In this document: one piece after another, positions 3,571-11,511 of the stretch
How positions within the stretch are numbered: the stretch's first letter is position 1
Layout: every line of letters starts with the position of its first letter
DNA from: Nitrospira sp.
GTDB taxonomy: Bacteria > Nitrospirota > Nitrospiria > Nitrospirales > Nitrospiraceae
Direction of reading: 5' to 3'
DNA length: 35,126 nt
NCBI GenBank assembly: GCA_023248215.1
Contig: JAHFEW010000046.1
Span: 1 to 35,126, forward strand
Translations under genes and position numbers: made by a program
The notes under the pieces: model-generated
Database searches by the model: none
The model's input: the letters and a program-made list of their open reading frames with translations, nothing else
Told to the model about the DNA's origin: nothing

Positions 3571-5091
3571 ATGGCACAAGCGAAGACCAGTAGGTGGCGC
3601 AAGATCAAAGTGATCGTCCTCATCCTGCTATTGTTGGCAGGCCTGGGTACTGTTGTCGGCTGGTACAAATTCTTCCGCGAAGAGCCTCAGCCCGACTGGG
3701 TCACCGCCACGCCGGACATGCGTTTCAAGTATGGCTCGATTGGTGCCGAATATGACGCCGGGGTTCCCTACTGGATCTGGTACGTGCTGCCGCGCATGTT
3801 CCCGGAGAAGCTGCCAGGACCAGGCGGCTATGCATCATTGGGCGTCCTCTGGGAAGAGGGGCAGGAATTGCCGATCGGCTTCACGAAGAAAGTGATCGGC
3901 TTTCCCCGCGTCGCCAACACCTGCGCCTCTTGTCACACCGCGAGCTACCGTTCCAAACCGGATGAGAATCCGACCTTTGTGCCGACCGGCCCTAACCACG
4001 CATTGAACCTCGAAGCCTTCTTTCGTTTCATGATCGACTGCGCAAAAGATCCACGTTTTAACCCCGATAACATGATGCGCGAGATCAACCTGGCGGCCGA
4101 CTTGTCCTTGCTCGACCGGGTGATCTATCGCTTCATCCTGATCCCGATTACGAAGAAGCGCTTGCTGGAGCGCGAGCAGCAGTTCGCTTGGATCTACCGG
4201 AAAGATTTTCCCGAATGGGGCCGCGGGCGAGACGACGCGATGAACCTGACTAAGTATTTCATGATCAAGTTTCCGATGGATAATTCGATTGGTCCGACCG
4301 ACATGCCGTCGCTTTGGAATCTCAACAAGTACAAGCCGGAGAAGGGTCATTTCATGAATTTCGCGGGCGACAGCCACGACCCGCGTTCCGTGATCATCGA
4401 CTCAGCGCTGGGCGTGCTCGGCGCGTCGCCGCACGACAAGGAAGAGTTTCTTGGCCACATCAAATGGTTCGAGGCCTATCTTGGGGCCTATCCGGCGCCC
4501 AAGTATCCGTTCCCGATCGACCAGCAGAAAGCGGCAGCCGGAAAGTCGGTGTTCGACAAAACCTGCGCGCGCTGCCACGCGAGTGACCGGACCGGCACGC
4601 CCGTGCCGGTGGAAGAGGTCGGCACGGACCGAGGACGGCTGGAGACCTGGAGCAAGCAGGCAGCGATCGAGGCGAACAAGGTGGTCACTGACATGGGTAT
4701 CGAGCGAAAAGGCCTGGTCGAAGAGAATCCCAGCGGCTACACCGCCGCGTTCCTCGACGGCATCTGGCTTCGGGCGCCCTACCTGCACAACGGCTCGGTG
4801 CCCACGCTCCACGACTTGTTAGAGCCGGTCGAGAAGCGGCCGAAACTTTTCTATCGCGGCTATGATGTGTACAACCAGGTCAAGGTCGGATTCGTCACAT
4901 CTCCGCAGGAAGCGCAGTTGGTCGGGATGCAATGCGAAGTCGAGCAGGGAAAAGTTCTCTGCGAGGTCGAACGGGTCGGCACGCGCTACGACGTGAGCGA
5001 GCGCGGCAGCGGTAATCAGGGGCATGTGTACGGGACGGAATTGCAATCCAAAGAAAAAGACGCGCTGGTGGAGTATCTGAAGACGTTATGA
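3571..5091 (+). CDS. Membrane-anchored di-heme cytochrome c, RoxA/peroxidase-like (paralogue)
   Basis: The 506-residue product starts at an ATG 32 bp after the previous stop, with GAGGAG ahead of it. Residues about 11-30 form a hydrophobic anchor after a Lys/Arg-rich start. Heme motifs are CASCH (118-122) and CARCH (332-336). It shares with its neighbour the PYWIW motif, the 'LRAPYLHNGSVPTLHDLLEP' block and the 'FYRGYDVYNQVKVGFV' segment, so the two arose by tandem duplication. Close to the C-terminus it has a pair of extra cysteines (in 'MQCEVEQGKVLCEVE') absent from the neighbour, possibly a disulfide in the periplasm. The function is inferred only at the level of di-heme cytochrome; the partner and substrate are unknown. 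Confidence 0.85.
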   Translation: MAQAKTSRWRKIKVIVLILLLLAGLGTVVGWYKFFREEPQPDWVTATPDMRFKYGSIGAEYDAGVPYWIWYVLPRMFPEKLPGPGGYASLGVLWEEGQELPIGFTKKVIGFPRVANTCASCHTASYRSKPDENPTFVPTGPNHALNLEAFFRFMIDCAKDPRFNPDNMMREINLAADLSLLDRVIYRFILIPITKKRLLEREQQFAWIYRKDFPEWGRGRDDAMNLTKYFMIKFPMDNSIGPTDMPSLWNLNKYKPEKGHFMNFAGDSHDPRSVIIDSALGVLGASPHDKEEFLGHIKWFEAYLGAYPAPKYPFPIDQQKAAAGKSVFDKTCARCHASDRTGTPVPVEEVGTDRGRLETWSKQAAIEANKVVTDMGIERKGLVEENPSGYTAAFLDGIWLRAPYLHNGSVPTLHDLLEPVEKRPKLFYRGYDVYNQVKVGFVTSPQEAQLVGMQCEVEQGKVLCEVERVGTRYDVSERGSGNQGHVYGTELQSKEKDALVEYLKTL

Positions 5092-5164: not shown

Positions 5165-5189
5165 CCGTGCCATCCTGGAGAGGTGTCAT

Positions 5190-6203
5190 ATGCGACAAGA
5201 GTTTCGTGTGTTTGTGGCATCGCCAGGAGATGTGCAGTCGGAACGGGAGTCACTTGGCAAAGCTATTGTGGAAGTCAATCAGACTCACGGGCAACCATTG
5301 GGATATCTCCTTGACCTTGTACAGTGGAAATCCCATGCGGTCCCGGATGCGAAACCTCCCCAGTCGGCGATAAATGATCAATTGGGAGATTACGATATCT
5401 TTATTGGAATTATGTGGCGACGATTCGGCACGCCGACGGGAGTTGCAGGATCTGGAACGGAAGAAGAGATTCGTCGTGCTTATAGGAGATGGGAAAAGGA
5501 CGAACGACTGCCCGTCATGCTGTACTTTTCCCAGAAGCAGTTCATGCCGGCGAATGTAGACGAGAACGACCAAATGCGAAAAGTGTTGCTCTTGCGCCAG
5601 GAGCTATCAGGAAAGTCTCTCGTGTGGGAATACCAGGGGCCGGAGGTTTTCGAAGAAACCATCCGCAAGCATCTGTGCCTCCGGATGAGCCGCATCATGA
5701 ATGATAAAACTCGTTCGACCAGCCAGACGAAAAGTTCAAACGATAAGAGTAGCGCCTTATTGCACGAATCCTGGAGTCACATGACACCGGATCTTCAGAA
5801 TGCCTTGAGCATTGCGCATAATGAAAATCGGATGGCCGGAGATGGTGGAATTAAAACCGAGGATCTGTTTGCGGCATTGAGACGGATCGGATCACCGCAG
5901 TTGCAGGCGATCATCAAGGACATCCCAAAACAGGCGCTTCCTCGCCCAACAAAAGGAACCGTCATTGATAAACCCTACCTTCTTGAGGAACAGCCATGGT
6001 TGTCTCACTGTGTTGCATCGTCCATCAGACGTTTAACTAAGCGGGCTGGAACAAAGAAGCAGATTGCTGCAACGGATATTTTTGTAGACATTGCAAAGCA
6101 TGGCTCTGGCAAATCAGTTAGCTTGTTGCGGAAGCACGGTATCGGCCCGGAACAAATTGACAAAATTGTCACACACCACAAAATCAAGGTTTTAAATGCT
6201 TAG
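5190..6203 (+). CDS. DUF4062 domain protein with C-terminal Clp-N-like repeats
   Basis: The 337-residue protein starts at an ATG behind GGAGAGG. Residues 5-165 look like a DUF4062 domain, a TIR-like alpha/beta fold in family knowledge: 'RVFVASPGDVQSERE' at the start, 'YDIFIGIMWRRFG' at 68-80, and SGTEEEI at 88-94. A polar linker (170-190) follows. Residues 196-330 resemble the double helical repeat of Clp ATPase N-domains: 'MTPDLQNALSIAHNE' and 'IKTEDLFAAL' in the first repeat, then 'SVSLLRKHGIGPEQI' in the second. No AAA+ ATPase follows, so this is not a Clp ATPase. Codon use and base composition are visibly more A/T-rich than the flanking cytochrome genes, suggesting transfer. DUF4062 proteins often accompany NTPases in conflict systems; a defence or stress-signalling role is an inference. 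Confidence 0.7.
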   Translation: MRQEFRVFVASPGDVQSERESLGKAIVEVNQTHGQPLGYLLDLVQWKSHAVPDAKPPQSAINDQLGDYDIFIGIMWRRFGTPTGVAGSGTEEEIRRAYRRWEKDERLPVMLYFSQKQFMPANVDENDQMRKVLLLRQELSGKSLVWEYQGPEVFEETIRKHLCLRMSRIMNDKTRSTSQTKSSNDKSSALLHESWSHMTPDLQNALSIAHNENRMAGDGGIKTEDLFAALRRIGSPQLQAIIKDIPKQALPRPTKGTVIDKPYLLEEQPWLSHCVASSIRRLTKRAGTKKQIAATDIFVDIAKHGSGKSVSLLRKHGIGPEQIDKIVTHHKIKVLNA

Positions 6204-6799: not shown

Positions 6800-7036
6800 C
6801 TAGCCGGTCATCCGGCAAAAGCTCTCGATCTCATCCGCAAATTCTACTCGCTCCGCCTCGAACTCATCCTTCTGCCGACCTTCATCCATCAGATGCGAAA
6901 GCAGATCGAGCCACCGGCCCGTGGCGCCCATGCGCTCATAGGACAGCGTCTCGGCCCGATCGTCAGGCGTATGGTAGTGAGGCGTTCGCGCTGCGAGATG
7001 GGTTTCAAGCCACCTCGGCAGAGAAGCATTATCTGA
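6800..7036 (-). pseudogene. C-terminal remnant of an M28-type zinc peptidase
   Basis: The minus-strand frame ending at 6800 encodes SDN followed about 20 residues later by 'TPHYHTPDDRAETLSYERM'. In M28 aminopeptidases an SDH motif is followed by a metal-binding His in a Y-H-T-P context, then a DT/ET and ERM-like helix, so the match in order and spacing is good. Everything upstream (the catalytic Asp/Glu and first zinc ligands, several hundred residues) is missing; the frame to 7294 has no recognisable family content and no ribosome binding site. I read it as a decayed gene end within the accessory patch. Confidence 0.45.
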
Positions 7037-7366
7037 GGAAGCCGTGGGCCGATAACCTGCTTCACCAAGCCTTGAAGTTATCAACGTGTGAACCACCTTA
7101 ATCCATAGGAGCGGATAGTCTAGCCTCAGCTCACCTATCGGATTGCATACACACCGTATCTGTTTCGATACCGCTTTACTATGTGATCTCACGACTGTCC
7201 ATGAGGTATGGAGAAGATGAGTCTGCAAAGAATGGTCGAATGCCCAGGCAATTTCGCGGTTTTCCCGGTTGTGCGTGTAAACCGTGCTGTCCACCTCCGA
7301 CTGGTACAGATGTTGCTCAATACAGCTCGCAGCAGACTCGACAAGAGCACAAACGGAGATCGTGCC

Positions 7367-8003: not shown

Positions 8004-8079
8004 TGGTGGAGGGCAGGGGAGTTGAACCCCCGACCCCTACGTTGCGAACGTAGTGCTCTCCCAACTGAGCTAGCCCCCC
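8004..8079 (-). tRNA. tRNA-Ala (anticodon CGC)
   Basis: The minus strand folds as a complete 76-nt cloverleaf. The acceptor stem is GGGGGGC/GCCCTCC with the G3:U70 wobble pair that is the alanine identity element. The anticodon arm is CTACG-TTCGCAA-CGTAG, giving anticodon CGC for codon GCG. The T-loop GTTCAAC is present and the 3' CCA is encoded (8004-8006). It lies just downstream of purN on the same strand. Confidence 0.95.
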
Positions 8080-10110: not shown

Positions 10111-11511
10111 TTAGCTTTCTGGGCGCATCTCGACATCGAGGAGTTTGATCTTCCGATGCAGGTGGCTGCGCTCGATCTGCAGGTCTTCGGCCGTGCGGGA
10201 AATGTTCCAATGATGCTCGCGCAGCTTGCGGGCGATGAATTCCTTTTCGAACGCATTGCGCGCATCGCGGAGAGAGTCGTAGTGCCTGGTCAGCAGCGTA
10301 TTGGCTGGTTGAGCCCCCATGACCGGTTGCGGCGCCGACAGATTGGGGCGCACTTGCAGCGCCACCGACGCATGCGAGGCCTCGATCACAGGACCCGGCA
10401 CCATGATCATCAGTCGTTCAATCAGATTGCGCAATTCACGAATATTGCCCGGCCACTCATACTGCATAAATACTTCCATGGCCTCCGGCGACACCTGCTT
10501 GATCTTCAGCCCTTGTTCCTCTGCATGGATATGCAGGAAATGTTTGACGAGCAGTGGAATATCCTCGCGACGGTCTCTCAACGTCGGCACCACGATCGGC
10601 ACCACATTGAGGCGGTAAAAGAGGTCTTCCCGAAACGTACCTTTGTCAATTTCCTTCAGTAGATCCTTATTAGAAGCCGCCAAGACTCGCACATCGACCT
10701 TGATCAGTTTCGTCCCGCCCACCCGCGTGAACTGCTGCTCTTGAAGGGCTCGCAAGACCTTGGCCTGCGTACTCAGGCTCATATCCGCGATCTCATCCAG
10801 AAATAAGGTACCGCCGTCGGCCTGCTCGAACTGGCCGCGCTTCATGGTCGTGGCTCCGCTGAATGAGCCTCGCTCGTGCCCGAACAACTCGCTCTCGATC
10901 AAGGTTTCCGGAATTGCGGCACAGTTCACCGCCACAAAGGGGCGATCTGCCCTGGCGCTATGTTGATGGATGGCCCTGGCCACCAGTTCTTTTCCGGTTC
11001 CGTTCTCGCCTCCAATCAAGACGCGACTGTTGGTCGGACCGGCCGTTTCGATAATTTGCTTCAACTGCTGCATGACCGGCGCATGCCCGACCAACTCGAA
11101 CTTGCGCTCCACCTTGGTGCGAAGCGTACGATTTTCCTGCTCGAGCCTGTGTTGATCCAAGGCATGCTTCACCCGTAGCGTGACGTTTTCGAGCGAGAGC
11201 GGCTTTTCAATGTAGTCGTACGCCCCCAGCTTGATGGCTTTCACCGCCGTCTCGATCGACCCATGCCCCGACATCATCATGACCTGCGTGTTCGGAACCA
11301 ATTCCCGCAGCCGTCTCAGCGTCTCCAGACCGTCCATCTCGGGCATCCAAATATCCAGCATCATCAGTTCCGGCGGATTCACGGCGCACAGCTTCAGCGC
11401 CTCGACGCCGCTCTTGGCCACGCTCACCTCATAGCCTTCATCCTCCAGGATGCTGCTCAAGGAGTTCAGGATCGACACTTCATCGTCGACAATAAGAATC
11501 GAAGCAGACAT
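10111..11511 (-). CDS. ntrX: NtrX-type sigma-54-interacting response regulator
   Basis: The 466-residue protein has three domains in order: receiver (residues 4-118; phospho-acceptor D53, K103), AAA+ sigma-54 interaction domain (138-375) and a Fis-type helix-turn-helix (415-457, 'NISRTAEDLQIERSHLHRKI'). Walker A is GGENGTGKE (167-175) and Walker B is GGTLFLDEI (233-241). The sigma-54-contact loop reads GSFSGA (215-220) instead of the consensus GAFTGA. The ATG follows GGGGAGAAG. It sits after the NtrY kinase on the same strand and should be its phosphorylation partner; in other bacteria NtrYX governs nitrogen, redox or envelope responses. Repeat copies B and A bracket the gene. Confidence 0.9.
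   Translation of the reverse strand: MSASILIVDDEVSILNSLSSILEDEGYEVSVAKSGVEALKLCAVNPPELMMLDIWMPEMDGLETLRRLRELVPNTQVMMMSGHGSIETAVKAIKLGAYDYIEKPLSLENVTLRVKHALDQHRLEQENRTLRTKVERKFELVGHAPVMQQLKQIIETAGPTNSRVLIGGENGTGKELVARAIHQHSARADRPFVAVNCAAIPETLIESELFGHERGSFSGATTMKRGQFEQADGGTLFLDEIADMSLSTQAKVLRALQEQQFTRVGGTKLIKVDVRVLAASNKDLLKEIDKGTFREDLFYRLNVVPIVVPTLRDRREDIPLLVKHFLHIHAEEQGLKIKQVSPEAMEVFMQYEWPGNIRELRNLIERLMIMVPGPVIEASHASVALQVRPNLSAPQPVMGAQPANTLLTRHYDSLRDARNAFEKEFIARKLREHHWNISRTAEDLQIERSHLHRKIKLLDVEMRPES

What the first reader, a model, noticed from the sequence alone, without database searches (positions are those of the whole stretch)
5190..6203. DUF4062 (TIR-like) domain fused to Clp-N-type repeats without an ATPase
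Residues 5-165 read as DUF4062 and residues 196-330 as two Clp-N-like helical repeats, yet no AAA+ domain follows. Clp-N domains normally recruit substrates or adaptors to ClpA/ClpB/ClpC; here that recruiting module is joined to a domain common in conflict-system proteins. The gene is A/T-richer than its surroundings and lies in a patch with a decayed gene. It may be a stand-alone stress or anti-phage sensor that senses or hijacks Clp protease clients. I do not know of a described system with this layout.
Basis: partly seen in the sequence, partly recalled or inferred. Interest (0 to 1): 0.75.

Follow-up and report, generated by a model that had tools for sequence, protein, structure and literature searches.

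The report
NAD-cleaving-type domain joined to Clp-N sensor
A Nitrospira gene joins a domain family recently shown to destroy NAD+ during phage attack to a helical module resembling the docking domain of Clp proteases; if it works as it looks, it is an anti-phage suicide switch with an unusual trigger, but nothing about its function has been tested.

Summary
Window 5190-6203 encodes 337 aa: DUF4062 at residues ~5-165 (Pfam above cut-off; model matches TIR and nucleotide-hydrolase folds, Z about 12), then two Clp-N-like four-helix repeats (~196-332) and no ATPase. Pfam does not call Clp_N. A profile built here from 108 Clp-N repeats does: the C-terminal half outscores 5000 of 5000 shuffles. A low-confidence model of that half alone retrieves Clp N-domains for 34 of its first 36 PDB matches. 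This protein keeps the catalytic-type motif (SGTEEE, E93) but has a Clp-N-like module where Swarozyc has a winged helix. Most likely it is an abortive-infection NADase with a different sensor. The fusion was found intact in only two Nitrospira genomes. A 2463-aa protein in another Nitrospiraceae genus also has Clp-N next to DUF4062. No defence gene was recognised nearby; the gene is AT-rich and patchy. New variant of a known kind. The trigger (phage protein, Clp-binding factor or misfolded protein) is unknown.

The parts
5177..5183 (+). Probable ribosome-binding site GGAGAGG, 6 bases before the ATG
   Evidence: read from sequence
5190..6203 (+). Whole gene, 337 aa: DUF4062 plus Clp-N-like repeats
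   Evidence: intact, 99% identical protein in a second Nitrospira genome (L043 = L111) with dN/dS about 0.12 from 10 substitutions
5190..5693 (+). DUF4062 TIR-like domain, residues 1-168
   Evidence: Pfam PF13271; PDC-S60 1-211 E 1.7e-42; model matches TIR domains and DNPH1/MilB-type hydrolases, Z 11-12
5451..5468 (+). SGTEEE motif (residues 88-93); E92 and E93 invariant in both alignments; E93 is the likely catalytic glutamate
   Evidence: invariant columns in A1 and A3; assignment of E93 is by register with SARM1 and nucleoside deoxyribosyltransferase motifs recalled from memory, not tested
5685..5747 (+). Helical/flexible linker, residues 166-186 (end of helix 151-178, then a Ser/Thr/Lys-rich stretch); possible stalk
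   Evidence: model m00e55be51033
5775..5945 (+). Clp-N-like repeat 1, residues 196-252; helices 200-215, 223-233, 236-243; T199 and E224 at the positions of ClpC T7 and E32
   Evidence: profile 16.2 bits, 0 of 5000 shuffles; helices
5985..6185 (+). Clp-N-like repeat 2, residues 266-332; helices 269-283, 289-304, 307-315, 320-329; the ClpC E106 position is T295
   Evidence: profile 7.7 bits, 2 of 5000 shuffles; helices

Best explanation
A horizontally acquired, single-gene abortive-infection switch of the DUF4062/Swarozyc kind. The N-terminal TIR-like domain is an NADase (inferred from family and motif) held inactive in the resting oligomer. The C-terminal Clp-N-like pair of repeats is the auxiliary sensor. 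It binds a protein or peptide that appears during phage infection; as it derives from a Clp docking domain, the likeliest ligands are a phage protein that binds the host Clp N-domain, or a multimeric phage protein directly. [quoted passage not shown] Shown here: fold and family of the N-terminal domain, conservation of the glutamates, Clp-N-like repeats above chance, absence of an ATPase, patchy distribution. Inferred: enzyme activity, oligomer switching, ligand, anti-phage role.
For: DUF4062 above the Pfam cut-off, and all 12 scanned homologues match the candidate-defence profile PDC-S60. E92, E93, S88, G89 and T90 are invariant in homologues. TIR/NAD-glycohydrolase fold, Z about 12. Published: DUF4062 is a TIR-like NADase, active-site Glu and C-terminal auxiliary domain both needed for defence, auxiliary domain senses the phage portal (PMC13174449). 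Same domain elsewhere joined to interchangeable partners (NACHT, DnaB/KaiC-type ATPase, AAA/STAND, HEAT, FHA), as expected of effector plus sensor. Homologues lie on phage/prophage contigs and beside a type I restriction system on a plasmid. Clp-N-like C-terminus above shuffles, and Clp N-domains fill 34 of the first 36 Foldseek rows. AT-rich, absent from 22 congeners sampled, yet intact and nearly identical in a second genome while the flanking remnant decays. A second Nitrospiraceae protein places Clp-N directly after DUF4062 within a TIR-STAND-NACHT-WD40 protein.
Against: No credible defence gene among the PADLOC-scanned neighbours. The C-terminal model is low confidence (pLDDT 57, single sequence) and its global superposition on Clp N-domains is poor (TM 0.2-0.3; VIA Z 3.7). 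Pfam does not recognise Clp_N. Only two sequences of this exact fusion, so conservation of the sensor cannot be judged. PDC-S60 is matched only over its first 212 of 906 positions.
Confidence: 0.55

Rival explanations
1. Proteotoxic-stress or Clp-status sensor: the Clp-N module binds misfolded or tagged cell proteins, adaptors or Clp itself, and the DUF4062 domain cuts NAD+ or makes a signal under stress; phage is only one of several triggers or none.
For: Clp-N domains bind substrates, adaptors and phosphoarginine (PMC12583610); the E32-equivalent E224 and T199 are present in repeat 1; clpC2 is also induced by heat (section heading).
Against: The repeat-2 glutamate is T295; the gene is patchy and AT-rich rather than core; relatives sit in phage and restriction contexts.
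Confidence: 0.17
2. ClpC2-like sponge or adaptor: the protein mainly captures peptides or toxins aimed at the host Clp N-domains, and the DUF4062 part only dimerises.
For: Mycobacterial ClpC2 has a dimerising N-terminal domain, a ClpC1-NTD-like C-terminal domain, no ATPase, and acts as sensor and sponge for cyclomarin A (PMC10030653). ClpC2 is among the Foldseek rows.
Against: The invariant active-site motif of DUF4062 is kept, which a mere dimeriser would not need; the C-terminus is too diverged to be an obvious mimic of this genome's own Clp N-domains (pairwise scores mostly at shuffle level).
Confidence: 0.1
3. The C-terminal half is not Clp-N but an unrelated helical auxiliary domain of a Swarozyc-type protein that directly binds a phage structural protein.
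For: Pfam finds no Clp_N; low model confidence; VIA ranks other folds higher; other DUF4062 partners are very varied.
Against: Both repeats score above shuffles with a Clp-N profile and Foldseek's first 36 rows are almost all Clp N-domains.
Confidence: 0.13
4. An inactive or decaying gene with no present function.
For: It lies in an AT-rich, eroding patch beside a gene remnant.
Against: The frame is intact in two genomes; 7 of 10 substitutions are synonymous, dN/dS about 0.12, whereas the flanking remnant carries stops in the second genome.
Confidence: 0.05

Closest known systems
Swarozyc (KpSwz), DUF4062 TIR-like NADase of Klebsiella and others (PMC13174449)
   Same: N-terminal DUF4062 with conserved Glu-type active-site motif, helical link, C-terminal auxiliary domain, single gene
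   Different: KpSwz auxiliary domain is an HTH/winged fold that grips the phage portal; here the auxiliary part is a pair of Clp-N-like repeats, and the gene is not in a recognised defence island
PADLOC candidate PDC-S60
   Same: First 211 residues match its profile at E 1.7e-42
   Different: The profile is 906 positions long and only its first 212 are matched; the rest of this protein is different
ClpC2 of mycobacteria (PMC10030653)
   Same: A Clp-N-type C-terminal domain joined to a different N-terminal domain, without AAA+ ATPase; acts as a sensor
   Different: Its N-terminal domain is not described as DUF4062; it represses its own promoter and soaks up cyclomarin; no NADase reported
ClpN repeats fused to vWA proteins in ternary conflict systems (PMC7159879)
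   Same: Clp-N repeats used as a module in a predicted conflict system
   Different: Partner is vWA/MoxR with ubiquitin-like machinery, not DUF4062
TIR-STAND-HEAT-NACHT-DUF4062-ClpN-WD40 protein, 2463 aa, genome G204 (L198)
   Same: Clp-N-like repeat directly after DUF4062, in the same bacterial family
   Different: Giant multidomain receptor-like protein with its own TIR and STAND NTPases; only one clear Clp-N repeat; DUF4062 of a different subtype

Membership tests
DUF4062 (PF13271), TIR-like NADase family | Pfam score over the curated cut-off | tested here: met
   30 bits against 24.7
DUF4062 (PF13271), TIR-like NADase family | TIR/NDT-like fold | tested here: met
   Model residues 1-173 match TIR domains and DNPH1/MilB, Z 11-12
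DUF4062 (PF13271), TIR-like NADase family | Conserved catalytic glutamate | tested here: met
   E92 and E93 invariant in two sets of homologues; which one is catalytic is inferred
[quoted passage not shown]
   needs enzyme assay
Swarozyc defence system | C-terminal HTH/winged auxiliary domain like KpSwz | tested here: not met
   C-terminal half is all-helical with Clp-N-like repeats; no winged helix predicted, though model confidence is low
Swarozyc defence system | Location in or near defence genes (over half of published homologues) | tested here: not met
   Fifteen other window ORFs scanned with PADLOC, no credible hit
Swarozyc defence system | Portal-triggered phage defence | not testable with these tools
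   needs phage assay
Clp_N (PF02861) | Recognised by the Pfam model | tested here: not met
   No match up to E 10, whole C-terminal half or parts
Clp_N (PF02861) | Sequence profile similarity above chance | tested here: met
   20.7 bits, 0 of 5000 shuffles; both repeats separately
Clp_N (PF02861) | Two four-helix repeats in Clp N-domain arrangement | tested here: inconclusive
   Helix order repeats twice and Foldseek's first rows are Clp N-domains, but pLDDT 57, TM 0.2-0.3 and VIA Z 3.7
Clp_N (PF02861) | Phosphoarginine-site glutamates (ClpC E32, E106) | tested here: inconclusive
   E224 at the E32 position, T295 at the E106 position by register
ClpA/B/C ATPases | AAA+ domain after Clp_N | tested here: not met
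   ORF ends at residue 337; no AAA+ in it
PADLOC PDC-S60 | Match over the full 906-position profile | tested here: not met
   Only positions 1-212

The most novel reading that the evidence does not exclude
The Clp-N-like module is an integrated decoy: it copies the docking domain of the host Clp unfoldases so that phage proteins which bind or disable Clp also bind this protein and trigger NAD+ depletion. That would be a bacterial guard system watching protein quality control, parallel to integrated decoys in plant immune receptors.
Probability: 0.15. Interest if true: 0.85.

Novelty: new variant of a known kind. Interest (0 to 1): 0.5.

Why it matters
DUF4062 proteins have just been shown to be NADases in bacterial immunity and in the vault particle, and the open question is what their many different auxiliary domains sense. 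A Clp-N-type module as the sensor would tie NAD+-depleting immunity to the protein quality-control machinery and suggest concrete ligands (Clp adaptors, phage Clp-binding proteins, phosphoarginine proteins) to test. It would also add DUF4062 to the few known proteins that use Clp-N without an ATPase.

Tried and rejected
Pfam, NCBIfam and solved-structure sequence searches gave nothing useful for the C-terminal half. PDB sequence hits (calmodulin-like, oxytocin receptor) are noise. C-terminal homologues were sought in 396 Nitrospirota genomes, genome contigs, viral contigs and plasmids: only the second Nitrospira copy was found; the weak hits at E 0.009-0.1 were not pursued. A survey of about 110 DUF4062 ORFs with a Clp-N profile found only this protein and L133/L198. 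Large ORFs were read only as far as the fetched stretch, so fusions could be missed. VIA-align 2 did not put Clp N-domains first for the C-terminal model; with a pLDDT 57 model this is uninformative. Direct pairwise alignment with the genome's own ClpB/ClpC N-domains is mostly at shuffle level, so I do not claim close mimicry. The PADLOC RtcR hits to the response regulator at 10111-11511 rest on its sigma-54 AAA+ part and were rejected as defence evidence.

Full report
What was checked. The ORF at 5190-6203 (+) is intact, encodes 337 aa and has a good ribosome site. The genome is a Nitrospira: the close copy L043 is labelled Nitrospira defluvii MAG, and the genome search placed that copy's genome, G396, in the same genus as the window genome.

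N-terminal half. DUF4062 is found above the Pfam cut-off, and the candidate-defence profile PDC-S60 matches residues 1-211 at E 1.7e-42. Homologues in 25 of 396 sampled Nitrospirota genomes align to about residue 165-180 and no further. In two independent alignments the motif S88-G89-T90-x-E92-E93 is invariant, with W76, R78, G80 and T83. The AlphaFold2 model of this half is good (most blocks pLDDT 70-90) and matches TIR domains (RPP1, AbTir, SPARTA) and nucleotide N-glycosidases (DNPH1, MilB) at Z 10-12. By register with motifs that I recall for SARM1 and deoxyribosyltransferases, E93 is the catalytic glutamate; this is an inference.

What the domain does. A preprint of May 2026 (PMC13174449) reports DUF4062 as a family of TIR-like NADases. 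In bacteria a DUF4062 protein with a C-terminal auxiliary domain (Swarozyc) is activated by the phage portal protein, depletes NAD+ and causes abortive infection; both the glutamate E97 and the auxiliary domain are needed. That auxiliary domain is an HTH/winged fold. The text does not mention Clp. Many of the phage/prophage-contig homologues found here have a C-terminal region ending in a conserved KWxxALxEL...GxKGExFxxTxxG pattern, which I read as that winged type.

C-terminal half. Pfam and NCBIfam do not recognise Clp_N. A stricter test was made with a profile of 108 Clp-N repeats from Nitrospirota ClpB and ClpC: the C-terminal half scores 20.7 bits, against at most 8.9 in 5000 shuffles; repeat 1 (16.2 bits, 0 of 5000) and repeat 2 (7.7 bits, 2 of 5000) are each above chance. 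The predicted helices recur in the same order twice. A model of this half alone, from a single sequence and at pLDDT 57, gives Foldseek rows of which 34 of the first 36 are Clp N-domains or ClpT/ClpC2 (the other two a malarial proteostasis protein), aligned over the whole length, but at E 0.1-1.6 and TM 0.2-0.3, and VIA-align gives ClpC1 only Z 3.7. I take Clp-N-like as probable, not proven. The repeat-1 positions of ClpC T7 and E32 are T199 and E224; the E106 position of repeat 2 is T295. E32 and E106 are phosphoarginine-site residues (PMC12583610).

Is the fusion known or recurrent? The exact fusion was found only here and in the Nitrospira defluvii MAG (L043/L111), at the same place behind the same cytochrome c peroxidase genes, with 3 amino-acid changes and dN/dS about 0.12 from 10 substitutions. 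Two complete congeners (G141, G247) with the same cytochrome genes lack it; in G141 other genes follow the cytochrome genes. Among about 110 DUF4062 ORFs scanned, one other carries a Clp-N repeat right after DUF4062: a 2463-aa protein of another Nitrospiraceae genus with TIR, STAND NTPase, HEAT, NACHT-type, DUF4062, Clp-N and WD40 parts. Its Clp-N piece reaches Pfam E 0.096 and finds, in 60 genomes, mostly proteins of 812-941 aa, the sizes of ClpB and ClpC. Clp-N repeats in conflict proteins were noted in 2020 (PMC7159879). ATPase-less Clp-N proteins that sense ligands are known from ClpC2 (PMC10030653). I found no paper on DUF4062 with Clp.

Context. No scanned neighbour is a credible defence gene. 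The gene is AT-rich (49.2% GC, third-position GC 52%, against 57.9% for the window and 76% third-position GC in the neighbouring gene) and absent from the 22 other congeners in the sample. Related DUF4062 genes lie on phage-like contigs and plasmids, one directly behind a type I restriction system, and are joined to NACHT, DnaB/KaiC-type, AAA, HEAT or FHA parts. This is the pattern of an effector domain combined with changing sensors.

Mechanism. Best reading: a one-gene abortive-infection NADase whose Clp-N-like repeats bind an infection-linked ligand. What is shown is anatomy, conservation and distribution. What is inferred is the enzyme activity, the switch and the ligand. The most novel reading not excluded is an integrated decoy of the host Clp docking domain that senses phage proteins which target Clp. 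Against close mimicry, the module is strongly diverged from this genome's own Clp N-domains.

Verdict. Observation confirmed, interpretation partly supported, new variant of a known kind, interest 0.5.

Noticed in passing
window 6800-7040 (-): Remnant of a protein whose intact relative in this genome (L224:370-1737, 455 aa) has the GAHYDHLG / DDNASS look of an M28-type metallopeptidase (my reading). Relatives are in 28 of 29 congeners searched; the same remnant in the second genome carries stops.
   Followed up: partly
window 8004-8079 (-): tRNA-Ala (cgc) about 1.8 kb behind the gene, also closing the same stretch in L111; a possible integration site bordering the AT-rich patch.
   Followed up: no
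window 3571-5091 against L043:2830-4350: The second cytochrome c peroxidase gene differs by 145 bases between the two genomes (dS 0.28) while its neighbours on both sides differ by 8-10 bases; looks like a local recombination patch.
   Followed up: no
L198:1889-9277 (-): A 2463-aa Nitrospiraceae protein with TIR, nSTAND1, HEAT, NPHP3_N/NACHT-type, DUF4062, Clp-N-like and WD40 parts and possibly a CHAT-like end (the last is my reading); two TIR-superfamily domains in one chain.
   Followed up: partly
L010:613-1995 (-) and L011:589-2010 (-): DUF4062 joined to a DnaB_C/KaiC-type RecA-fold ATPase in other Nitrospirota.
   Followed up: no
L017:1498-2352 (+): A DUF4062-like protein with a C-terminal FHA-type domain, a weak match just under the cut-off; possible phosphopeptide sensor.
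   Followed up: no
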